From a virus, in IMG/VR virus record IMGVR_UViG_3300017751_000053, positions 1 to 40,521 of that record: a stretch of DNA of 40,521 nt. One strand, written 5' to 3'. Every line of letters begins with the position of its first letter. The first letter of the stretch is position 1. The notes beneath the pieces are model-generated. The model was given only the letters and a program-made list of their open reading frames with translations, had not been told where the DNA came from and did not search any database. The position numbers and the translations under genes are program-made. Shown here piece after piece: positions 805 to 39,035 of the stretch.

Positions 805-2430
805 ATGTCAATTAAATACACAAATTCAAGCGTAGTTAAAACTACCGAACAGAAAAAAGGGCCTGGATACCCTAATGATGAGTATCTAAGCCAAGTAAAC
901 GAATGGAAAAGAAACAGAGCCGTCATCCAAGGGCCATCTTATACAAAAGATTTCGATACAGTACCAAGTTCAGATAACTTATTACTGCCTTTTAACCCTA
1001 CAATGACCCAATCTCAATACGACTTCTACAAAGCCGAAGCCGAAGTCCCAGGCGTTACATCAGAATTTTCAAAAATGATTATAGGTGGTCTATTAAGAAA
1101 ACAACCCCTATTAGAAATTAACAATGCCCCTGAGGGTGCTAAACAATGGATATTAGACGATATCGGTGGTGATAAGTCTAACTTATTATCATTTTTAGGT
1201 ACTGCTTTATGGGAAGAATTACAAACATCAAGAGCCTGGATCCAAATAGATTATCCTACTGTTGATTTAGACAGCCTAAGCCCTGAGGAGAGACGTGAGG
1301 TTAAGCCTTACCCAGTGCTACACACAGCTGAGAATATTATTAACTGGTCAACATCAACTGACATTAAAGGTCAAGTTAAGTTAGATCAACTTATAACAAG
1401 ATATTTTACTTTAGATTACGATCCTAACTCACCTTATCATCCAAAATATGTGGATAGTGTACAAGTACACAAATTAGATGAGAATGGATTATATATTATT
1501 GAGAACTTTGTTAGAAACACGTCAGATACACCAAGCTTTATTGATGGTGCTATTGATTATCAGTTTGATCAATTAACTGACGAGTGGATTAGTACAGGTC
1601 TTAATGATAACTTATTTAAGAATGGTGAGAGAATGAATTTTATTCCCTTTTACCCATTAAATGGATCTGTTGATACTGTAGATCCGATGATGACTCCTAT
1701 TGTGAATAGAGAAATAGCGTTATACAATAAAATAAGTAGACGAAACCACTTATTATATTTATCTGCTACCTATACACCAGTAGTTAAGTCTGATTCATTA
1801 ACAGAAGCTGAAAAGAACGATCTTGTTAAACAAGGTCTTGGTACTTGGATGTTTGTTAATAAGGATGACACAGTTGAGACATTACAAACGCCTACAGACG
1901 CTTTAAAAGATATGGAATCTGCTATTAAGAATGGATATGACGAATTAACTAGAATTGGTGTTAAGATGTTAAGCCTAGAGCCGAACAACTCCGATCAATC
2001 TGGTGTAGCCCTATCGTTACGTAACGCATCTCAAAATGCAGCACTTGCTACATTAAATGCTAAAGTATCTGAGGCTATGAAAAAGATCATTAAACATTTA
2101 GTTAACTGGAGATATGATATTGATGTCAAAGAGGCTGATATTAGATTTAATTTATCTAGTGATTTCAATCCTGCACCTCGTGGGGCTGATTGGATGAGAC
2201 TAATTACTGAATGGTATTCTGGGGGTTTAATTCCTAGATCTGCTTTCATTGAATTAGCTAAGAACAATGATGCTTTACCTACTGATTATGATGATGTTGG
2301 TGGTAAAGATGAGATATCACAAGATGATCGTATTATATCGCCAAGAGAACAATATGAATCTGAACTTAAATCATTAGAGTCCTCAAGTAAACAAGATGAA
2401 GATGAGGATGACGATGAAAAACTTAACTAA
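805..2430 (+). CDS. Portal protein (DUF4055-like)
   Basis: The portal is the dodecameric ring at one capsid vertex through which DNA is packaged and leaves. The 541-residue length fits portals. The pattern matches DUF4055-type portals: an N-terminal region with Arg/Tyr-rich stretches, a GGLLRKQP segment near residue 95, a helical region around residues 370-430 and a segment about NLSSDFNPAPRGADWMRLI near the end. The last ~25 residues are very acidic (EDEDDDEKLN), as often seen at portal C-termini. A weak AGGAAAC Shine-Dalgarno sequence lies upstream of the ATG. It sits between the terminase and the head genes, which supports the call. The DUF assignment is by pattern only. Confidence 0.75.
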   Translation: MSIKYTNSSVVKTTEQKKGPGYPNDEYLSQVNEWKRNRAVIQGPSYTKDFDTVPSSDNLLLPFNPTMTQSQYDFYKAEAEVPGVTSEFSKMIIGGLLRKQPLLEINNAPEGAKQWILDDIGGDKSNLLSFLGTALWEELQTSRAWIQIDYPTVDLDSLSPEERREVKPYPVLHTAENIINWSTSTDIKGQVKLDQLITRYFTLDYDPNSPYHPKYVDSVQVHKLDENGLYIIENFVRNTSDTPSFIDGAIDYQFDQLTDEWISTGLNDNLFKNGERMNFIPFYPLNGSVDTVDPMMTPIVNREIALYNKISRRNHLLYLSATYTPVVKSDSLTEAEKNDLVKQGLGTWMFVNKDDTVETLQTPTDALKDMESAIKNGYDELTRIGVKMLSLEPNNSDQSGVALSLRNASQNAALATLNAKVSEAMKKIIKHLVNWRYDIDVKEADIRFNLSSDFNPAPRGADWMRLITEWYSGGLIPRSAFIELAKNNDALPTDYDDVGGKDEISQDDRIISPREQYESELKSLESSSKQDEDEDDDEKLN

Positions 2431-2533
2431 GTATATAATTTTTGGGGCCCTGATAATTTATCTGGGCTCCATAACCGCATTAGCAAAAGAAAAAATTAAA
2501 CAAGATAATATTAAAATTTTAAAAACACAATAA
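2414..2533 (+). CDS. Small membrane or exported peptide (39 aa)
   Basis: A 39-residue reading frame overlaps the end of the portal gene. A GAGG Shine-Dalgarno lies 6 bases before its ATG. After MKNLTK it has one hydrophobic stretch (about residues 8-22) ending in ALA before a Lys-rich tail. This could be a membrane anchor or a signal peptide. It fills the gap before nrdA. A stem-loop (2443-2471) lies inside it, so it may instead be a non-coding attenuator. No family is recognised. Confidence 0.45.
   Translation: MKNLTKYIIFGALIIYLGSITALAKEKIKQDNIKILKTQ
2443..2471 (+). terminator. Stem-loop just after portal stop
   Basis: TGGGGCCC (2443-2450) pairs with GGGCTCCA (2464-2471), eight pairs including one G-T, around a 13-base loop. 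There is no U-tract after it. It may act as an attenuator or an mRNA-stabilising end for the portal message ahead of nrdA. Confidence 0.4.
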
Positions 2534-2545
2534 AGGATTATAAAA

Positions 2546-4300
2546 ATGATAAACAAGGACAGAGATGAATTGTTAACCGATTTTGGTAAAACAACACTTA
2601 AAGATAGGTATTTATTACCCGAAGAGGATAGTCCTCAAGAAGCTTTTATTAGAGCAGCTAAAGCCTTTTCTGACAATGATGAGATGGCTCAAAGAATTTA
2701 CGATTACGCAAGTAAACAATGGTTTATGTTTAGTACTCCAATATTATCTAATGGCGGAACTAAAAGAGGAATGCCAATTAGTTGTTTTCTTAATTATGTA
2801 GGTGATAGCCGAGAGGGGATTACTGGACACTACACTGAGAATGCATGGCTAACGTCTATAGGCGGTGGTATTGGTGGTTATTGGGGTGATATTAGATCTG
2901 ATGGTACAAACACAAGTGGTGGATCTCAATCTTCTGGTTCAATACCTTTTTTACATGTTGTTGATAGTGAAATTATGGCCTTTAGCCAAGGTAAGACAAG
3001 ACGTGGTAGTTATGCTGCCTATATGGATGTTAGTCATCCTGAGATCTTAGAATTTTTAGATATAAGAAAACCAAGTGGTGGGGATATACATAGAAAATGT
3101 TTAAATCTACATCATGGGATTAATATATCAAATGATTTTATGGAATTAGTTGAGAGATGTATATCTGAGCCTACTTATGACGATACATGGAACTTAATTG
3201 ATCCACATACAAAAGAAACTATAAGAACTGTATCTGCAAGAGATTTGTGGCAAAAGATATTAGAAAATCGAGTAGCTACTGGTGAGCCGTATGTATGTTT
3301 TATTGATCATATCAATGATGCATTGCCTGAAACACAAAAAGCCCTAGGCCTAAAAGTTAATCATAGTAATTTATGTACTGAGATAACTTTACCTACAGCC
3401 GAGGATAGAACAGCCGTGTGTTGTTTATCGTCTGTTAATTTAGAAACTTATGATGAGTGGAAAAATGATAAATTGTTTATAGGTGATCTGGTAAGATTTT
3501 TAGATAACGTATTAACGTCATTTATTGAGAATGCACCTGACAGTGTATTTAGAGCTAAGTTTTCTGCAACACAAGAGAGATCTATTGGTCTTGGTGCTAT
3601 GGGTTTTCATGCTTATTTACAAAAGTGTGGAATACCATTTGAATCAGCATTAGCTAAAGCTAAGAATTTAAATATATTTAAACATATTAAAACTGAGGCT
3701 GTGGCTGAATCTAAAAGGTTAGCTGTAAAACGTGGTGAAGCCCCTGATATGGAAGGTACTGGAATGCGTAATGCTCATTTATTAGCAATTGCACCCAATG
3801 CCTCAAGTTCTATTATCTGTGGTACTACATCACCATCTATTGAGCCTTATAGAGCAAATGCTTATGTACAAAAGACTATGAGTGGATCGTTCTTAGTTAA
3901 GAACAAACATTTAGAAAAACTATTAGAAACAAAAGGAATAAATAATGATAAAACGTGGACTTCAATACTTGCTAACCGTGGTTCGGTACTGCATATCAAA
4001 GATTTGTCAGATTACGAAAAAGATATATACAAAACTTCGATTGAAATAAACCAACAATGGGTGATTGAACATGCCTCAGATAGACAACCGTTTATTTGTC
4101 AAGGTCAATCATTAAATGTTTTTGTACCTGCTGATGTTAATATTAAAGAATTACATGATATTCATATGTTAGCATGGAAACGAAAACTAAAGACATTATA
4201 CTATTGTAGAAGTGAGGCTATTAAAAGGGCTGAACTTGTATCATTAAAAGTTGAACGAACAATAATACCTGAAGCTGATTGCTTGGCTTGTGAGGGTTAA
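2546..4300 (+). CDS. nrdA: Ribonucleotide reductase class Ia, large subunit
   Basis: It reduces ribonucleoside diphosphates to deoxy forms, supplying DNA precursors together with NrdB. Visible motifs are the catalytic N-L-C-T-E stretch (N275, C277, E279), the redox-active Cys candidates C80 (in PISCFLN) and C292/C293 (CCLSSVNL), the radical-path Tyr pair Y552-Y553 and a C-terminal CxxC (C579, C582) for re-reduction by host thioredoxin or glutaredoxin. At 584 residues it is shorter than cellular NrdA (about 760). The N-terminal ATP-cone that gives dATP feedback inhibition is absent, as in many phage enzymes. It has a weak AAAGG ribosome site and sits 22 bases before nrdB. Its position within the head genes is unusual. 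Confidence 0.95.
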   Translation: MINKDRDELLTDFGKTTLKDRYLLPEEDSPQEAFIRAAKAFSDNDEMAQRIYDYASKQWFMFSTPILSNGGTKRGMPISCFLNYVGDSREGITGHYTENAWLTSIGGGIGGYWGDIRSDGTNTSGGSQSSGSIPFLHVVDSEIMAFSQGKTRRGSYAAYMDVSHPEILEFLDIRKPSGGDIHRKCLNLHHGINISNDFMELVERCISEPTYDDTWNLIDPHTKETIRTVSARDLWQKILENRVATGEPYVCFIDHINDALPETQKALGLKVNHSNLCTEITLPTAEDRTAVCCLSSVNLETYDEWKNDKLFIGDLVRFLDNVLTSFIENAPDSVFRAKFSATQERSIGLGAMGFHAYLQKCGIPFESALAKAKNLNIFKHIKTEAVAESKRLAVKRGEAPDMEGTGMRNAHLLAIAPNASSSIICGTTSPSIEPYRANAYVQKTMSGSFLVKNKHLEKLLETKGINNDKTWTSILANRGSVLHIKDLSDYEKDIYKTSIEINQQWVIEHASDRQPFICQGQSLNVFVPADVNIKELHDIHMLAWKRKLKTLYYCRSEAIKRAELVSLKVERTIIPEADCLACEG

Positions 4301-4322
4301 TTAAAAAAAGGAAATAAAGAAT

Positions 4323-5276
4323 ATGAGTCTATTTAAGTCACGAACACATTATAAACCATTTGATTATGAATGGGCGTTTGAAGCTTACGATACGATGCAA
4401 AAAATGCATTGGTTACCAAGTGAAGTACCATTGCATGAAGACATTAGAGATTGGAATGAAAGATTAACTGATGAGGAAAAGAGTCTTATTAGTAGTATTC
4501 TTAAATTCTTTACTCAAGGTGATGTTGATATTGCTCAAGCTTACTTAGATAGATATATTCCTAAGTTTAAACCACCTGAAGTTAGAATGATGTTAAGTTC
4601 ATTTGCTAATTCTGAGGCTAATCATGCTCATAGTTACTCATTACTTAATGACACTATAGGTGAAACACAATTAACTGATTATAAGGCATTTCAAGAGTAT
4701 AAAGAGATGTCTGATAAACATGCTTACTTATTTAAATCTAAAGGTACTGGAACAGAGGGTCTTATAAGAGATATCGCTTGTTTTAGTGCTTTTGGTGAGG
4801 GTTTACAATTATTTGCATCGTTCGTTATGCTACTGAACTTTCAGAGGTTCGGCCGTATGAAGGGAATGTGCCAAATTGTAACTTGGTCTATAAGAGATGA
4901 GACTCATCATGTTGAGGGTATGATTAAATTATTCCATCAATTGATAAAAGAGAATCCTGACGTATGGACAGAAAAGTTTAAAGCTGAGATATATCAAACA
5001 GCTAGAGATATGGTTGAACTTGAAGATAAGTTTATAGATCTAGCATTTGCTAAAGGTGGTATTAGAGGTTTAAAATCAGAAGATGTTAAACAATACATAA
5101 GATATATTGCTGACAGAAGATTGTTACAACTATCATTAAAACCAAATTACAAAGTTAAAGAGAATCCTTTAAGTTGGCTTGATTGGGTTATTAATGGTGT
5201 TGAACATGCTAACTTCTTTGAAAGTAGAGCAACCGAATATAATAAAGGTACTTTAACTGGAAGTTTGTGGGGTTAG
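4323..5276 (+). CDS. nrdB: Ribonucleotide reductase class Ia, small subunit
   Basis: This is the di-iron subunit that makes the Tyr radical used by NrdA. Metal ligands are visible in the standard spacing: D67, E98 and H101 (NSEANHAHSY), E159 (FGEG) and E193 with H196 (RDETHH). Y105, seven residues after E98, matches the radical Tyr (E. coli Y122 follows E115 by seven). The 317-residue length is slightly short for NrdB. The C-terminus ends in LTGSLWG, the part expected to dock to NrdA. A clear AAAGGAAA Shine-Dalgarno precedes the ATG. With nrdA it forms a two-gene cassette. Confidence 0.95.
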   Translation: MSLFKSRTHYKPFDYEWAFEAYDTMQKMHWLPSEVPLHEDIRDWNERLTDEEKSLISSILKFFTQGDVDIAQAYLDRYIPKFKPPEVRMMLSSFANSEANHAHSYSLLNDTIGETQLTDYKAFQEYKEMSDKHAYLFKSKGTGTEGLIRDIACFSAFGEGLQLFASFVMLLNFQRFGRMKGMCQIVTWSIRDETHHVEGMIKLFHQLIKENPDVWTEKFKAEIYQTARDMVELEDKFIDLAFAKGGIRGLKSEDVKQYIRYIADRRLLQLSLKPNYKVKENPLSWLDWVINGVEHANFFESRATEYNKGTLTGSLWG

Positions 5277-5277
5277 T

Positions 5278-5496
5278 ATGGAATTCATGTTAATATTATA
5301 TGTCTGTGCAAGTACATCAACTATGTGCTCACCCGCTATGGAGTCTGAGGTGAGATATAAAGATCTATATGATTGTTTAAAAGATGGTTATAAAAAATCT
5401 ATTGTTCAAATGGAAAAGGTAGGTAGAGATAACACTAATAATTTAGGTATATCTGTTAAGTTTGAATGTAAAAAGGATAAAAGCGAGGAGGCTTAA
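5278..5496 (+). CDS. Small Cys-containing, probably exported protein
   Basis: A 72-residue protein starts one base after the nrdB stop. The N-terminus is hydrophobic (LILYVCAST), suggesting a short signal or anchor. Four Cys follow at C10, C17, C33 (in DCLK) and C64 (in FEC). Its final base overlaps the next start. The layout of a hydrophobic start, a Cys-Leu-Lys and an aromatic-x-Cys near the end resembles the 70-residue product at 31639-31851. Small phage proteins of this sort are common in marine phages, with unknown role. Confidence 0.6.
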   Translation: MEFMLILYVCASTSTMCSPAMESEVRYKDLYDCLKDGYKKSIVQMEKVGRDNTNNLGISVKFECKKDKSEEA

Positions 5497-5735
5497 TGGC
5501 AAAGTATCAAGGTCGAACTGTAAAGCTTAATAAACCAATGCAAGGTGATGTTAAAAAGTTTAAGGTGTTTGTAAAGAATGCAAACGGTAATGTAGTAAAA
5601 GTTAACTTTGGTCAAAAGGGTGTTAAGATTAGAAAATCTAATCCTAAAGCCCGTGCTAGTTTTAGAGCAAGACATAAGTGTGCTACACCAGGGCCTAAAA
5701 CAAAAGCGAGATATTGGTCTTGCAGAAAGTGGTAA
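5496..5735 (+). CDS. Small basic protein with ARHKC and YWSC motifs
   Basis: A 79-residue strongly basic protein has a good GAGGAGG ribosome site. It contains a central beta-like region (KFKVFVKNANGNVVKVNFG), then PKARASFRARHKC and a C-terminal YWSCRKW. This is a recurrent small-protein family in marine phages, including T4-like cyanophages, and looks like DUF5872, though that assignment is from memory. The two Cys could bind a metal. Its place among head genes suggests a DNA- or capsid-associated role, which is an inference only. Confidence 0.7.
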   Translation: MAKYQGRTVKLNKPMQGDVKKFKVFVKNANGNVVKVNFGQKGVKIRKSNPKARASFRARHKCATPGPKTKARYWSCRKW

Positions 5736-5741
5736 TTTATT

Positions 5742-5837
5742 ATGGCTTATAAAAAGAAAAAATATAAAGGTAAGGCTTGTTGGAAGGGTTACCGTAGAGG
5801 TAAAGGTAACAGCTGTATCAAAATGAAAAGAGGATAA
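5742..5837 (+). CDS. Tiny basic protein with CWKGY motif (31 aa)
   Basis: A 31-residue frame is made mostly of Lys, Arg and Gly with the motif CWKGYRRGKGNSC. A similar CWKGY...NC pattern recurs in small proteins of marine phages. It follows the previous gene by 6 bases and precedes another Lys-rich frame. No function is known; the charge suggests binding to nucleic acid. Confidence 0.5.
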   Translation: MAYKKKKYKGKACWKGYRRGKGNSCIKMKRG

Positions 5838-5849
5838 GGAGATGGTAAG

Positions 5850-5945
5850 ATGTTGTTGCGAGGTAAGAAAAGTAAGAAGAACGAGGATGAATATAAGACG
5901 AAAAAGAAAAAGTCTAAGAAGAAAGTAAAATATAAAAGGAAATAA
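5850..5945 (+). CDS. Tiny Lys-rich protein (31 aa)
   Basis: Start ATG 5850 has an AAGGAG ribosome site 8 bases upstream. About half of the residues are Lys (for example KTKKKKSKKKVKYKRK). An earlier ATG at 5842 in another frame gives a 28-residue Cys/Arg peptide but would overlap the ribosome site, so the later start is preferred. It may be a DNA-condensing peptide or chance coding in an A-rich stretch. Confidence 0.4.
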   Translation: MLLRGKKSKKNEDEYKTKKKKSKKKVKYKRK

Positions 5946-5947
5946 AA

Positions 5948-6157
5948 ATGATTGAAGATAAAGTAATTACAATAAACGATAAAGAATATAAAGAGAGTGA
6001 ACTATCACCTACCGTTAAACATAATTTAGCAATATTAGGTGATTGTAATAATAAAAAGATACTAGCTAGTTTAGATGTTGCTAAAAACGATATCTTAATT
6101 GCTGAATATTCTAAAAGAATTAACGATGAGTTAGATCAACTCAAAGATAAAAAGTAA
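5948..6157 (+). CDS. Small DUF6447-like protein
   Basis: A 69-residue protein has the pattern of DUF6447: a short beta segment (KVITINDKEYKESELSP), then a helix predicted to form a coiled coil, containing ILGDCNNKKI and ending in a charged KDKK tail. This family is widespread in marine phages and its role is unknown. It has an AAAGGAAA ribosome site and sits 9 bases before the MuF gene. The family call rests on pattern recall. Confidence 0.65.
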   Translation: MIEDKVITINDKEYKESELSPTVKHNLAILGDCNNKKILASLDVAKNDILIAEYSKRINDELDQLKDKK

Positions 6158-6166
6158 AAGGAATAA

Positions 6167-8365
6167 ATGAGTATAAACGATGATATATTATCTAGAGAGC
6201 TGAAAAACCGTGCTCTTTTAAGTCTTTACGAAAAGAAACTAGATACCGATTTAACAAAAGTCATGTCATCCCATAAAAAACGATTAGTTAACTCTGCTTT
6301 AAAGAATGGTAATAAAAGTGTAAACGCTTTAAACCGTGCTTTAACTTTAGAGACTAGAAAAACTTATCGTAAGATATACAGAAATGGAATTTCAGAATTA
6401 AAAGCTTTGGCTAATACTAGTTCTAAGTTCCATAACAATACTTTAAAACAAAGCTTAGGTAAAGTTTATAGAAGTAAAGTGTATACTGGGTTGAAAGTTA
6501 ATGATTTAATTATTAATTCAGCAGGAACATATTCTCAACAAATTGCATCTATCAGTTTAACACAACAGAGAAGAATTAAGGATGTTGTGAAAAAAGGTAT
6601 GATAGAAAACTTAGCTGTTAATAAGATTGCTAAGAATGTAGGTAATTCAATTGATTTACCCACTGCTCAATTAAAAACTTTATCTAGAACTGCTATAACT
6701 GAAACATCAAGTAATATATCTAATGCAACTTACAAGTTGAATGAAGATGTTATTGATGGTTATCAGTATGTAGCAACTTTAGACTCAAGAACTTCTTTAA
6801 TTTGTGGAAGATTAGACGGTAAGGTTTTCAGATTAGATGATAATAGAGGTGTTAGACCGCCACAACATTTTAACTGTAGATCTACAACTGTTCCTATTGT
6901 TAAATCTTATGAGGATATAAGAAACACAAAAAGTTCTAGAATTAGTAAAAGAAGATTACAAAGAATTTCTGGTAGTAAGAGAGCATCTTTTAATGGTCAA
7001 GTTCCTAGTAAAACTAACTTTGAACAATTTTTAGCTACTCAAGATGATGATTTTAAATTAGCTATATTAGGTAATAAACGTAGAGTTGAAATATTTAATA
7101 CTGGTAAATTAAAGTTTACACAATTTAGTACAAAAGATGGTCAATTAGTATCAGTAGGTAGATTAGAAGAATTACTTAATGGTGTTAAAGTCAAACCTGT
7201 TGTTAGAACACCTACAAGAGCATCTACTAAAACTAAAGTTGTTAGTAGTGATCAACCTTTATTTGGTGAGACTAATAAAAGAGAATTAAGAATGCTAGAG
7301 ATGGCTTTTGGTACTACAGAAGATACTTATACAAAGCTTATACAATCTATACCCGCACCAGGACAGGTATTGTTCTCAGGCGGTGCTAAGTATAACCGTA
7401 AAAAGGGTAAATACATAAGAGGTTTACCAAGAACAGAAGAGAACATTGAGTGGTTTGATTCAGTAAACTTTGGTTCTAAAGGTGGTTACTCAGATTTAAA
7501 CATACAATTAACTGCTGCTCATGAATATGCTCATAGAATTGATTATAGAGTTTTAGAAAACTTAATAAAAGATGATGAGAAATTTAAAAAACTTATTAAA
7601 GGTTTTTCTACTGATAAATTTGTTAGATCACAAAAAAGTCAGTTAGGTGTACCTAATGCAATACAAGTAAAACTTAAAAGCTTAGATGGTTATGATAATA
7701 ATGTATTTCAACCATCAACATTTTCAGAGATTGCTGTAGATGAGATAGCTAAAGATTATAATGCTTTAAGATTAGATGTTGGTACAAGAAGAGCTAGTAC
7801 TCTTAATGCTAGTAGAAAGGCTCAAAGAGGTTTAAAGGATGCTGTTAAGAATCCTACTGATAGAGCTGAGGTTAGTAAATACTATGCTGACTTAACTAAA
7901 AAAGAGAAAAGTCTACCAGGTATAAGTGATGATGATCTTTACTATTATTTACAAGAGAATAGAAAAGAGAATTCTATATTTGCACCACCAACGGCTGAAG
8001 ATCTTTATATATTTAAAAAGAAAATAAATGATAGAATGATGGTAAATACTCCAGGTCAAAAAGGTTATGATCTTGATTTTAATTTAACATTTAATGATTA
8101 TACAGGTGCTATTTCTAGAAATGAAATAGGATATGGTCATGATTTATCATACTATTTAGATCGTAAAAAACTTGGTTATCTTGATGATGGGACTCCGCTT
8201 TCGGATACTATGGTTAAGGAATCTTATGCTGAGTATGTTGCAACAATGAAACACCCTGATATCAAGATTAGAAAAGTTGAGATTGCATTAATGAAACATT
8301 ATGCACCGAATACAACTAAGGCTTATGATACAATAATGGAAAGGTTAGGTGAGATATATGATTAA
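6167..8365 (+). CDS. MuF head morphogenesis protein fused to HExxH zincin-like domain
   Basis: This 732-residue protein has two parts. The first (about 1-250) is a Mu gpF/SPP1 gp7-like minor head protein: a long helical N-terminus, then RTAITETSSNISNATY (174-189), CGRLDGKVF (213-221) and PPQHFNCRST (231-240). Such proteins bind the portal inside the head and can enter the host with DNA. After a basic linker, residues about 365-732 hold a second domain with TAAHEYAHRID, an HExxH zinc site at 452-456. A downstream ESYAEYVA segment (685-692) could supply the third zinc ligand, as in lethal-factor-type metalloproteases. The protein is far longer than a plain MuF protein. MuF polymorphic toxins with zincin ends are known, and this architecture fits them. 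Activity is inferred. Confidence 0.75.
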   Translation: MSINDDILSRELKNRALLSLYEKKLDTDLTKVMSSHKKRLVNSALKNGNKSVNALNRALTLETRKTYRKIYRNGISELKALANTSSKFHNNTLKQSLGKVYRSKVYTGLKVNDLIINSAGTYSQQIASISLTQQRRIKDVVKKGMIENLAVNKIAKNVGNSIDLPTAQLKTLSRTAITETSSNISNATYKLNEDVIDGYQYVATLDSRTSLICGRLDGKVFRLDDNRGVRPPQHFNCRSTTVPIVKSYEDIRNTKSSRISKRRLQRISGSKRASFNGQVPSKTNFEQFLATQDDDFKLAILGNKRRVEIFNTGKLKFTQFSTKDGQLVSVGRLEELLNGVKVKPVVRTPTRASTKTKVVSSDQPLFGETNKRELRMLEMAFGTTEDTYTKLIQSIPAPGQVLFSGGAKYNRKKGKYIRGLPRTEENIEWFDSVNFGSKGGYSDLNIQLTAAHEYAHRIDYRVLENLIKDDEKFKKLIKGFSTDKFVRSQKSQLGVPNAIQVKLKSLDGYDNNVFQPSTFSEIAVDEIAKDYNALRLDVGTRRASTLNASRKAQRGLKDAVKNPTDRAEVSKYYADLTKKEKSLPGISDDDLYYYLQENRKENSIFAPPTAEDLYIFKKKINDRMMVNTPGQKGYDLDFNLTFNDYTGAISRNEIGYGHDLSYYLDRKKLGYLDDGTPLSDTMVKESYAEYVATMKHPDIKIRKVEIALMKHYAPNTTKAYDTIMERLGEIYD

Positions 8366-8612
8366 TAAAAACAGTCCTTTTATACTGAATGAATATATCA
8401 CTGAAAGTGAAAGACTTATTAAAAGTTATTTGAAAATAAATAAATTAGAAAAATTTCATTTTGATAGGTTTCATATAAGTCGTTCTTTACAATTTATAAA
8501 ACGGTTAGTTGAAATATTAACTAACTGCGTTAATGAAAAAAGAGAAATGACTAAAAAGGAAAGAGAAGAATTTTACCCCGTTGATGAAGATATGGATGTG
8601 GTAGATATATAA
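8358..8612 (+). CDS. Hypothetical 84-aa protein overlapping MuF-zincin gene
   Basis: The chosen ATG overlaps the end of the MuF gene by 8 bases and has AGGTGAG 4 bases upstream; a GTG at 8349 would add three residues but has no clear ribosome site. The protein looks helical, with basic and aromatic residues in the middle (KFHFDRFHISRSLQF) and an acidic end (DEDMDVVDI). No family is recognised. Its tight coupling to the MuF-zincin gene makes a partner role (chaperone or immunity) possible, but nothing in its sequence proves it. Confidence 0.6.
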   Translation: MINKNSPFILNEYITESERLIKSYLKINKLEKFHFDRFHISRSLQFIKRLVEILTNCVNEKREMTKKEREEFYPVDEDMDVVDI

Positions 8613-8686
8613 AAAGAATTTATATTTGTTTATAAGTATAGATTCATTAATAAATATAACAAGGGCCGTGTCCCAAGGAGAAGATA

Positions 8687-9340
8687 ATGAGTGAAGAAAT
8701 AAAAGTACAAGAAGACACTAAAGTCGAGGAAACTAAAGTTGATAATACAGATATTAAGAGTCTGGTTGATGCTGAGGTTGCTAAAGCTATTAAAAATATT
8801 AAAACTAATTTAGATAATGCATACAGTGAAAGAGATAATGCTCTTGCTGCTGTTGCTGAGGCTAAAAGTGAAAAGCAAAAAGCTGAGATAGAAGCCTTAG
8901 AAAAACAAGGTAAACACTCAGAAGTTATGCAAATGAAAATAGCTGAGATGAGTGCAAAGCTTGAGACTTATGAACAAAAGAACACAGAATTAAGCAGAGA
9001 TAACGCTGTGCGTTCTCAACTTAACTCTTTAAATTTCAAATCTGATAAAGCAGCTAAAATGGCTTATCAAGATATCGTAGGAAATTTAAAGAAGGATGCT
9101 ACTGGAAATTGGGTACATGAAAATGGCCTAAGTATTAATGATGCTGTGTCATCATATGCTAAAGACGATAATAATGCGTTTTTATTCTCAGTTAAAGCAA
9201 ATGCGGGTACGGGTATTAACCCTGCTAAACCCGCTTCAGGAAACAATCCTGTCAAATCTATAAAAGAGATGTCAACTGACGAACTACTTGCTAATATTGA
9301 AAAGGGTAACGTTAAAGTTGACGGAGACTGGGCTGAATAA
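8687..9340 (+). CDS. Capsid scaffolding protein (GP20-like)
   Basis: A 217-residue acidic protein has a long predicted coiled coil (about 30-105, rich in Ala, Glu, Lys), a globular part (about 110-165) and a Gly/Asn/Pro linker leading to a helical C-terminus (KEMSTDELLANIEKG). This matches phage scaffolds such as the minor capsid GP20 family, which guide capsid assembly through the C-terminus. It lies directly before the capsid gene and has a strong AAGGAG site. No protease motif is visible. Confidence 0.8.
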   Translation: MSEEIKVQEDTKVEETKVDNTDIKSLVDAEVAKAIKNIKTNLDNAYSERDNALAAVAEAKSEKQKAEIEALEKQGKHSEVMQMKIAEMSAKLETYEQKNTELSRDNAVRSQLNSLNFKSDKAAKMAYQDIVGNLKKDATGNWVHENGLSINDAVSSYAKDDNNAFLFSVKANAGTGINPAKPASGNNPVKSIKEMSTDELLANIEKGNVKVDGDWAE

Positions 9341-9404: not shown

Positions 9405-10466
9405 ATGACTGTAACAAGTTCAAATTTTAATAACATTGCTAAGGCAATTTCTGCTTACGCTCAAGCTGAAAGAACTGATGCTGCGTTATTAACTTCAACT
9501 GCTTTAGTTGGTTCTGACGCTAGAATTACTGATTCAGGTGAAAATTACACAGGTACACTAAGATGGTTAGATTTTGCTGATCCATCAACTTCTTACAAAC
9601 AATCAGAGACTATTACTGATGCTAACATTAACTTAATGTCTGCTTCAAACAAGTCTGCGGTTTATGTAAAAAACATTGATCACGTTGGTGCTCAAGAAGC
9701 TTCAATTCAAAAACTAGTATCTAAAGTAGATGGTTTATCTTACTTAGGTTCTCAATTCGCTGCTGTAAGAGCAAGAAGAGAAGACCTACAATTAAGATCT
9801 ATCTTAAATGGTGTTTCTGATAAAATTTGGGGTGCTACTGCTATTGGTGCTTCTGATTCAGAGGCTGTTGTAGGATCTTTTGGTTACTACACTGGTTCAG
9901 ATTCAGGATCAAACCCTGCAGCGTTATTTGCAACTGAAACAAATGCTAATAAAAGATCTGCTTTCTTCGATAAACTATTTGATGCAATGACTGCAATCAA
10001 AGGTGAATACGAAGAGCCTTTTTACTACCTAGTAGTTGACACTGCTACATACAACATTATGAGAAAACAAAACGTTCTTGATGTTGCACCTGTAGTTGAT
10101 GGTAACTTTAGTTTTAATACTGTTATGGGTGGTAAAATTAGATTAGTTATTAACAACCAAGTACTAACTGCTAACATGCCTTCAGGCTTAAAGGTTTCTT
10201 ACCTTGCTAAACCTGCTGCATTTCATTATAGCGAAATCGGACAAGTTAACCCAACTGCTGTTGACAGAAACGAACTAGCTGGTAATGGTGGTGGTGCTGT
10301 TACTATCCTATCAAGATGGGGTAATATCATGCATCCTAAAGGTTTCTCGTGGGCGGGATCTGCAACTGCATACCCTGCAAACATTGACCTAGCTGATGGT
10401 GCTTCATGGACTGTTCATGCTACTAACGTTAACCAAATGGGTATATTCCCTATATTCCACGGTTAA
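9405..10466 (+). CDS. Major capsid protein
   Basis: A 353-residue protein directly follows the scaffold gene, the standard place for the major capsid protein, which forms the icosahedral shell. Segments such as KNIDHVGAQEASIQKLVSKV and FFDKLFDAMTAIKGEYEEPF suit an HK97-type shell subunit. The C-terminal SRWGNIMHPKGFSW resembles the end of other capsid proteins. Codon use here is richer in C-ending codons (TAC, AAC, TTC) than its neighbours, consistent with high expression. The AAAGGAAAA ribosome site is strong. The identity comes from size, order and composition, not a catalytic motif. Confidence 0.8.
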   Translation: MTVTSSNFNNIAKAISAYAQAERTDAALLTSTALVGSDARITDSGENYTGTLRWLDFADPSTSYKQSETITDANINLMSASNKSAVYVKNIDHVGAQEASIQKLVSKVDGLSYLGSQFAAVRARREDLQLRSILNGVSDKIWGATAIGASDSEAVVGSFGYYTGSDSGSNPAALFATETNANKRSAFFDKLFDAMTAIKGEYEEPFYYLVVDTATYNIMRKQNVLDVAPVVDGNFSFNTVMGGKIRLVINNQVLTANMPSGLKVSYLAKPAAFHYSEIGQVNPTAVDRNELAGNGGGAVTILSRWGNIMHPKGFSWAGSATAYPANIDLADGASWTVHATNVNQMGIFPIFHG

Positions 10467-36949: not shown

Positions 36950-37651
36950 TTATAATTTATTATTAATTCTTTTATCGGCTATATCAAAATATTCTTTGTT
37001 TGATTCTATTCCAATAAAATTTCTATTAGTATTATTACAAGCAACACCCGTACTTCCGCTACCCATTGTAAAGTCTAAGACAGTGTCATTTTCATTAGTA
37101 TAAGTTTTAATTAAATATTCTAATAAGGCTACTGGCTTTTGGGTTGGGTGTAATTTATTTTTATCAGAAGCAAATTCAATAACAGTTTTAGGATATCTAA
37201 AACCATTATTTTCTGTAACAACAGAAACTTGATCGCCATAATTTGAACTAGGTCTACCTGATTTTATTTTATAAGGCTTACCTTGTGTCATTTGAGGATT
37301 ATACTTATGTGGTTTTAAACTAAACACACAAATATCTTCATGATTTTTTAATGGGTATTTCTTAGCATTAAGATGTCCCGTACCTTGGGGTTTCATCCAT
37401 ATCCAATTATACTTAAACATATTAAGATTGCTTGAAACTAAAACAGAAGTAAAAGGGTTTTGAGAAAATATTACTGACGCAGTATTATCTTTTGAAACCC
37501 TTTTTAATTCTACCCACATTTTATCTAATGGAATAATACTATCCCATTTATTTCTTGTAGTACCATAAGGCGGATCTGTAAGTATTAAATCAACACTATT
37601 AGATTCTAATGTTGGTAATACTTTTAAACAATCATCGTTTATGATTTTCAT
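36950..37651 (-). CDS. Adenine-N6-type DNA methyltransferase
   Basis: A 233-residue enzyme has DPPY (26-29) early and the SAM-binding loop DFTMGSGSTG (193-202) late. This motif order is the beta class. It should methylate adenine (N6; DPPY is usual for that, cytosine N4 less likely) in a specific site, with no restriction enzyme nearby. It probably protects phage DNA from host nucleases. Its start overlaps the dNMP kinase stop by 4 bases. Confidence 0.85.
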   Translation of the reverse strand: MKIINDDCLKVLPTLESNSVDLILTDPPYGTTRNKWDSIIPLDKMWVELKRVSKDNTASVIFSQNPFTSVLVSSNLNMFKYNWIWMKPQGTGHLNAKKYPLKNHEDICVFSLKPHKYNPQMTQGKPYKIKSGRPSSNYGDQVSVVTENNGFRYPKTVIEFASDKNKLHPTQKPVALLEYLIKTYTNENDTVLDFTMGSGSTGVACNNTNRNFIGIESNKEYFDIADKRINNKL

Positions 37652-38408: not shown

Positions 38409-39035
38409 TTATACTTTCATTTTAATTTCTTCGTTACTTTTAGGATATCCCATTAACGGATATTTTAAATCTTTTAACAATTGCTTCTTATCTTTTTTAT
38501 TAGCAATTATATAAATATATCTATGCTTTTGGGGTCTATCAACTTCATGAAACTTATCAGTATTCTCTTTACGATATTTTAAAGAATATTGTTCACAAAC
38601 AGTTTTACTATGTTTATTAGATCCTATTTCTCTCCACTCTTTTCTTTTAGTGGATAAGCCTGAATATAAAAAGTTAGTAGCCTGATAAATATAACCTGTA
38701 TGGTTTTGACTAGTATCAGCATAAGAAATTAAGATACTTGGTTGTGGTAACATTTTAATTGTTCTACCCACTAAAAAACTAGCCTCATTCTTTTTATTAT
38801 TTTTTAATACTAATCTATTTAACTCAATAACTTTTTTTCTATGATCAACACCCGCAACACCTTTACAAAGTGGTTGAGAGGGTGGCGATCCGTAAGTGAC
38901 AACACCAACTAATTCATTTTCATAAAATAAACCATAAGCGTAAGTAATGCTTGGCATTCTTTTCGCATAGTGAATATCTAAAATAAAAGGTTTAGTATCG
39001 TTATAGGTTATTTGTTTTACTGAATATCCAATCAT
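38409..39035 (-). CDS. Mom-like DNA modification protein
   Basis: A 208-residue protein has the pattern of phage Mu Mom relatives: HYAKRMPSITYAYGLF, VGVVTYGSPPS, VIELNRLVL, EASFLVGRTIKML and ISYADTSQNHTGYIYQATNF, then FLYSG. Mom is a GNAT-like protein that adds a group to adenine N6 in DNA, which blocks many restriction enzymes. In this window the gene lies near an adenine-type methylase and a dNMP kinase. Whether it is active as in Mu is not shown. Start overlaps the upstream gene by 4 bases. Confidence 0.75.
   Translation of the reverse strand: MIGYSVKQITYNDTKPFILDIHYAKRMPSITYAYGLFYENELVGVVTYGSPPSQPLCKGVAGVDHRKKVIELNRLVLKNNKKNEASFLVGRTIKMLPQPSILISYADTSQNHTGYIYQATNFLYSGLSTKRKEWREIGSNKHSKTVCEQYSLKYRKENTDKFHEVDRPQKHRYIYIIANKKDKKQLLKDLKYPLMGYPKSNEEIKMKV

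What the first reader, a model, noticed from the sequence alone, without database searches (positions are those of the whole stretch)
6167..8365. Head protein fused to a zinc-protease-like domain (candidate injected effector)
The MuF head domain (about 1-250) is followed by some 370 extra residues with HEYAH at 452-456 and a downstream ESYAEYVA segment that could give the third zinc ligand. MuF proteins can travel into the host with the DNA. MuF proteins with toxin ends, including lethal-factor-like zincins, are known from temperate phages. Here the fusion is in a phage that looks lytic, so the domain may act on the host at infection rather than in bacterial competition.
Basis: partly seen in the sequence, partly recalled or inferred. 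Interest (0 to 1): 0.75.

Follow-up and report, generated by a model that had tools for sequence, protein, structure and literature searches.

The report
Swappable protease on phage head protein
A marine phage (closest isolate infects SAR11) makes a minor head protein whose tail end is a predicted zinc protease; that end is exchanged between near-identical phages as a ready-made unit together with a small partner gene, as in known toxin-plus-antidote cassettes, but in phages with no recognisable integrase.

Summary
ORF 6167-8365 (732 aa) is a MuF head protein with a C-terminal domain holding HEYAH (452-456) and a conserved ESYAEYVA (E685). AlphaFold2 folds residues 346-732 confidently (pLDDT 87.5). 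Ten positions, including the HExxH residues, are invariant in 30 homologues.

The surroundings matter more than the domain. The MuF stem (1-340) is 86-100% identical among relatives, including Pelagibacter phage Kolga, yet what follows is one of four zincin families (A-D) or nothing. The exchanged block runs from about 7190 to 8612, so it always includes the small ORF overlapping the MuF stop. Small ORF and zincin family change together, even across two very different stem lineages. Short MuFs lack both. The window is 99.65% identical to contig L021 over 6,041 bp, up to the block, where another cassette begins.

Best reading: a virion-carried, probably ejected zinc peptidase with a cognate immunity or inhibitor protein, i.e. 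a MuF polymorphic effector cassette. MuF toxins are described as restricted to temperate phages; no integrase or resolvase was found here or in complete Kolga. A-type membership in M34 (lethal factor) is not supported. Ejection, target and immunity are inferred. New variant of a known kind.

The parts
6167..8365 (+). MuF head protein with C-terminal zincin-type domain (732 aa)
6167..7189 (+). conserved MuF stem, residues 1-341
   Evidence: 86-100% identical among 12 loci; homology to other-cassette relatives ends at 7174-7199
7190..7246 (+). basic, proline-rich linker; first 15 residues of the folded segment (346-360) have pLDDT below 50
7247..8362 (+). zincin-type domain, family A
   Evidence: AF2 pLDDT 87.5 / pTM 0.89 for residues 346-732; alignment A3
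7520..7534 (+). HEYAH motif, residues 452-456
8219..8242 (+). ESYAEYVA, residues 685-692; E685 is the third zinc-ligand candidate
8358..8612 (+). small partner ORF (84 aa), overlaps the MuF stop; putative immunity or inhibitor protein
   Evidence: co-varies with the zincin family
7190..8612 (+). exchangeable cassette: zincin domain plus partner ORF
   Evidence: blastn edges in 13 of 15 comparisons with other-cassette or A2 relatives at about 7174-7199 and 8603-8615; the two cassette-less loci resume at 8545; L021 and L009/L036 comparisons

Best explanation
The gene encodes a minor head protein made of a constant MuF stem (incorporation near the portal), a flexible linker and a zinc-dependent peptidase. 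The stem puts one or a few copies of the peptidase into the virion. It is delivered with the DNA and cleaves a host (or rival-phage) protein. The overlapping small gene makes a protein that binds and restrains its own peptidase during late expression, and possibly when sibling phages superinfect. Peptidase and partner travel together by recombination between phages as one cassette, so closely related phages carry different, matched pairs. Shown here: architecture, conserved zincin motif, confident fold prediction, cassette boundaries, co-exchange with the small ORF, purifying selection, dispensability. Inferred: zinc binding and peptidase activity, packaging and ejection, the target, and the immunity role.
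For: MuF stem within the portal/scaffold/capsid module. HExxH in every cassette long enough to be read. Four zincin families on both of two diverged sets of stems; 15 of 15 cross-lineage small-ORF matches at E<=1e-3 fall in the same zincin family. All 86 complete cassette loci with enough downstream sequence have the small ORF; all 48 complete short-MuF loci lack it (some contigs are counted twice). Sharp edges near 7190 and 8612. Window vs L021 99.65% over 6,041 bp, then a different cassette. At least 11 cassette changes on the stem tree. Cassettes younger than stems in several pairs, e.g. pS 0.080 vs 0.292. Same zincin family plus a small ORF in Streptococcus prophage MuF proteins. MuF-RNA polymerase fusions suggest that this kind of stem carries enzymes.
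Against: No experiment; no virion proteomics found. No significant PDB fold match for family A. All readable cassettes are zincins, whereas classical MuF toxins are mostly nucleases, so a specific peptidase task rather than generic toxicity may be meant. The small ORF has no known relative.
Confidence: 0.62

Rival explanations
1. Head-assembly protease: the zincin cleaves scaffold or capsid protein during maturation, tethered by MuF, and the small ORF regulates it.
For: It sits in the head module beside the scaffold gene; no other head protease was recognised among the head-module genes scanned; a weak PHROG link of the MuF part to phrog_595, 'head maturation protease'.
Against: 48 complete relatives lack the domain and the small ORF but keep the scaffold gene; four different zincin families serve nearly identical scaffold and capsid genes.
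Confidence: 0.1
2. Host-takeover effector: the ejected zincin degrades a host defence or regulatory protein at infection, and the small ORF only keeps it silent in the producing cell; exchange reflects an arms race with host targets rather than phage-phage conflict.
For: All cassettes are peptidases; polyvalent phage proteins delivered with DNA often contain zincins (PMC5512222); raised dN/dS in the zincin.
Against: The same evidence fits phage-phage conflict; a matched partner for every family is more than simple silencing needs.
Confidence: 0.35
3. Self-processing domain: the zincin releases the MuF stem or itself during entry and has no other substrate.
For: Long flexible linker; releasing metallopeptidases are known in polymorphic toxins (PMC3482391).
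Against: The protein ends with the zincin, so there is no further toxin to release; four families with matched partners are not needed for self-cleavage.
Confidence: 0.08
4. Decaying or non-functional passenger domain without enzymatic role.
For: Two Kolga-like loci have lost it.
Against: HExxH invariant, dN/dS below 1 in domain and partner, confident fold, repeated gain by exchange.
Confidence: 0.04

Closest known systems
MuF polymorphic toxins (Jamet et al. 2017, PMC5576092)
   Same: MuF N-terminus in the packaging module, variable C-terminus, small ORF after the gene (89.4% there); 20% of the 191 toxins there carry a metallopeptidase domain; Streptococcus prophage MuF proteins share this zincin family.
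   Different: Those are reported only in temperate phages, and more than half are nucleases. Here no integrase or resolvase is found, all readable cassettes are zincins, and the domain/partner cassette is caught being exchanged between near-identical phages.
Pelagibacter phages Kolga EXVC016S and Aegir EXVC013S
   Same: 87% identical stem, same gene order; MuF with a B-type zincin and a small ORF overlapping its stop.
   Different: Different zincin and partner; the gene is annotated only as a putative head morphogenesis protein.
Lethal-factor-type zincins (M34, Pfam ATLF), Peptidase_Mx1, M90/MtfA
   Same: HExxH followed by a downstream E-aromatic-A block; cassette B reaches sub-threshold Pfam matches, and its model ranks an MtfA-like hydrolase and lethal factor first.
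   Different: Window domain A is below every cut-off and has about 229 residues, mostly helical, between HExxH and E685.
Bxa/Bsi prophage ADP-ribosyltransferase toxin (PMC11699363)
   Same: Phage-encoded toxin with a protein that physically blocks it.
   Different: Different enzyme and N-terminal domain; tested experimentally.

Membership tests
MuF polymorphic toxins | N-terminal MuF domain in the head/packaging module | tested here: met
   PF04233; portal and scaffold neighbours
MuF polymorphic toxins | constant N-terminus with exchangeable C-terminal domains | tested here: met
MuF polymorphic toxins | C-terminal domain recognised as a known toxin family | tested here: not met
   A: none in Pfam or NCBIfam; B: sub-threshold only
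MuF polymorphic toxins | small ORF (cognate immunity candidate) immediately downstream | tested here: met
   position and co-variation met; neutralisation itself not tested
MuF polymorphic toxins | carried by temperate phages (reported association) | tested here: inconclusive
   no PF00589 or PF00239 in the window, Kolga (complete) and 5 relatives; no PF00589 in 12 other contigs; most contigs are fragments and lifestyle is unknown
MuF polymorphic toxins | toxicity to bacteria and delivery | not testable with these tools
   needs experiments
M34 / ATLF (lethal factor) | HExxH plus conserved downstream Glu | tested here: met
M34 / ATLF (lethal factor) | profile score above the Pfam cut-off | tested here: not met
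   no ATLF hit for A; B 19.9 bits against 27.4
M34 / ATLF (lethal factor) | same fold | tested here: inconclusive
   A: best PDB E 1.0; B: lethal factor probability up to 0.90 with E 0.049-0.085 for the best three entries
zincin/gluzincin metallopeptidases in general | conserved HExxH on a helix and a conserved Glu on a later helix | tested here: met
zincin/gluzincin metallopeptidases in general | metal binding and ligand geometry | not testable with these tools
   model coordinates not available; no assay
head maturation proteases | constant companion of the capsid/scaffold set | tested here: not met
   48 complete loci without it, next to the same type of scaffold gene

The most novel reading that the evidence does not exclude
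Non-integrating marine phages carry matched peptidase/antidote cassettes in the virion that decide the outcome when phages meet in one cell: an infected cell is protected against sibling virions by the small protein, while the delivered peptidase harms non-kin phages or the cells they occupy. Rare types gain, which keeps many cassettes in circulation.
Probability: 0.22. Interest if true: 0.85.

Novelty: new variant of a known kind. Interest (0 to 1): 0.64.

Why it matters
MuF toxins were reported as restricted to temperate phages and explained through lysogen competition or the lysis-lysogeny choice. The same toxin/immunity architecture in phages without a detectable integrase, exchanged repeatedly among near-identical genomes, asks for another selective reason, such as phage-phage competition or a proteolytic arms race with the host. 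The matched pairs are small, defined and directly testable, and an isolate (Kolga, on SAR11) exists.

Tried and rejected
phmmer of the full protein and of the C-terminus against PDB: nothing useful. Pfam and NCBIfam on domain A: nothing. tblastn of domain A against phages: no match. Genome-contig scan with A3: no relative. Foldseek of A against PDB: no match; against viral models: one unnamed protein at E 2.3e-5 and a siphovirus minor capsid protein at probability 0.77. A first clustering of C-termini merged all types because the second lineage's stem tail was included; trimmed to the core it gave four clean families. A and B: only 19 residues around HExxH align by profile; A and D share 66 C-terminal columns at probability 97. 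Maturation protease considered and rejected (see rivals). Literature search for MuF in pelagiphages found nothing relevant.

Full report
Observation. The reading frame 6167-8365 is intact, 732 aa. Residues 136-241 match the Pfam MuF domain at E 1.8e-14 and residues 26-341 the head-morphogenesis family phrog_241; phrog_4728 (head morphogenesis) aligns over residues 16-727, so the whole architecture is not unseen. HEYAH lies at 452-456 and ESYAEYVA begins at 685. Portal (805-2430), scaffold (8687-9340) and major head protein (9405-10466) surround it, so the gene sits in the head module. The window is an IMG/VR virus record of 40,521 bases.

Relatives. The closest annotated phages are Pelagibacter phages Kolga and Aegir, 87.3% identical over residues 1-346 and unrelated by BLAST after that. 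Kolga's own C-terminus also holds an HExxH. In viral contigs the stem is 86-100% identical among 12 loci, but the C-terminus is one of several types or missing. Trimmed to the part around and after HExxH, 63 unique cassettes form the same four families at linkage thresholds of 45 and 60 bits: A 31, B 17, D 11, C 4. The window is family A. Every cassette long enough to be read contains HExxH; none was seen that lacked it. Each family occurs both on Kolga-like stems and on other MuF stems. In a second stem lineage, complete loci either carry such a cassette (28) or are short MuF proteins of about 257-298 aa (46).

Partner gene. Directly after or overlapping the MuF stop lies a small ORF, in the window 8358-8612 (84 aa from ATG, with AGGTGAG before it). 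It is present in all 86 complete cassette loci with enough downstream sequence (three others, L008, L032 and L079, end within about 30-90 bases of the MuF gene) and absent from all 48 complete short-MuF loci (some contigs are counted in two sets). Its sequence follows the zincin family: at E<=1e-3 the best cross-lineage match of a small ORF was of the same zincin family in 15 of 15 cases; at E<=0.1 it was 17 of 21, and 16 of 2000 label permutations reached that. The four weak mismatches are short B-type ORFs.

Exchange. Against relatives with another cassette, nucleotide homology to the window stops at 7174-7199 and resumes at 8603-8615, the end of the small ORF; with L023 (family C) the flanks are 94.7% and 98.2% identical. 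Window bases 1166-7206 are 99.65% identical to L021, which then continues into an A2 cassette (about 29% identical by protein). L009 (A2) and L036 (D) are 98.7% and 98.3% identical on the two sides of unrelated cassettes. The stem tree needs at least 11 cassette changes, and the window groups with L003 and L021 at 100/97. In several same-type pairs the cassette has fewer synonymous differences than the stem (L002/L045 0.107 vs 0.356; L009/L030 0.080 vs 0.292), so cassettes move between stems. The two Kolga-like loci without a cassette keep the last bases of an A-like small ORF, so they look like deletions. dN/dS is below 1 for domain and small ORF (0.22-0.66 and 0.08-0.79) but mostly higher than for the stem (0.11-0.32).

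Structure. AlphaFold2 on 30 aligned homologues gives pLDDT 87.5 and pTM 0.89 for residues 346-732, with HExxH in helix 98-121 and E685 in helix 335-349 of the model; the first 15 residues are poorly defined. No PDB entry matches significantly; among viral models one unnamed protein matches at E 2.3e-5 and a siphovirus minor capsid protein at probability 0.77. The B-type model (pLDDT 80.5) ranks an MtfA-like hydrolase, lethal factor and M1 aminopeptidases first, all HExxH gluzincins, none below E 0.001. Pfam gives sub-threshold Mx1, ATLF and M90 matches for B. Hence 'zincin-type' is well supported for A by motif, conservation and helix placement, while membership in M34 is not.

Lifestyle. No phage integrase (PF00589) or resolvase (PF00239) in the window, the complete Kolga genome or five Kolga-like contigs, and no PF00589 in 12 further contigs; the controls rang. 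[quoted passage not shown]

Comparison. Jamet et al. (PMC5576092) define MuF toxins: MuF stem, variable toxin end, small ORF after it; 20% of 191 have a metallopeptidase domain; [quoted passage not shown] Streptococcus phages Javan202 and Javan351 carry the same zincin family (family-D core HMM E 1.1e-12 and 1.5e-11) with a 71- or 85-aa ORF following. The window system therefore works like, and is related to, the MuF metallopeptidase toxins. It differs in the phages that carry it, in using only zincins, and in the recent, repeated exchange seen here. Because the toxin-domain test failed for A and toxicity is untested, it is filed as a variant, not as a proven member.

Mechanism. Shown: architecture, conserved motif, boundaries, co-exchange, selection, dispensability. 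Inferred from the SPP1 gp7 and MuF literature: incorporation at the portal and delivery with DNA. Inferred: peptidase activity, target, and immunity role of the small ORF. The all-zincin content favours a defined proteolytic task; the matched partner and rapid exchange favour conflict with other phages or with varying host proteins. I could not separate these two.

Noticed in passing
L056 975-5420 (also L055, L057, L058): Distant MuF proteins (31% identical stem), about 1480-1507 aa where complete, whose C-terminal part in L056 matches DNA-dependent RNA polymerase PF00940 above cut-off (E 3.6e-7): an apparent MuF-RNA polymerase fusion, which suggests delivery of a polymerase with the DNA.
   Followed up: partly
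window 2546-5276: Ribonucleotide reductase large and small subunit genes sit between portal and MuF in the head module; the same order is seen in Kolga.
   Followed up: no
window 38412-39035 (-): Mom-like DNA modification protein (phrog_1384, E 9.3e-57) near a DNA methyltransferase (36953-37651): possible unusual base modification against host restriction.
   Followed up: no
L026 6024-6100, L015 1138-1210: Kolga-like loci with a short MuF (344 aa) keep the tail of an A-type small ORF: apparent cassette deletion.
   Followed up: yes
window 8613-8680: About 70-base intergenic stretch after the cassette is nearly identical in L026 and may be the right-hand recombination anchor.
   Followed up: no
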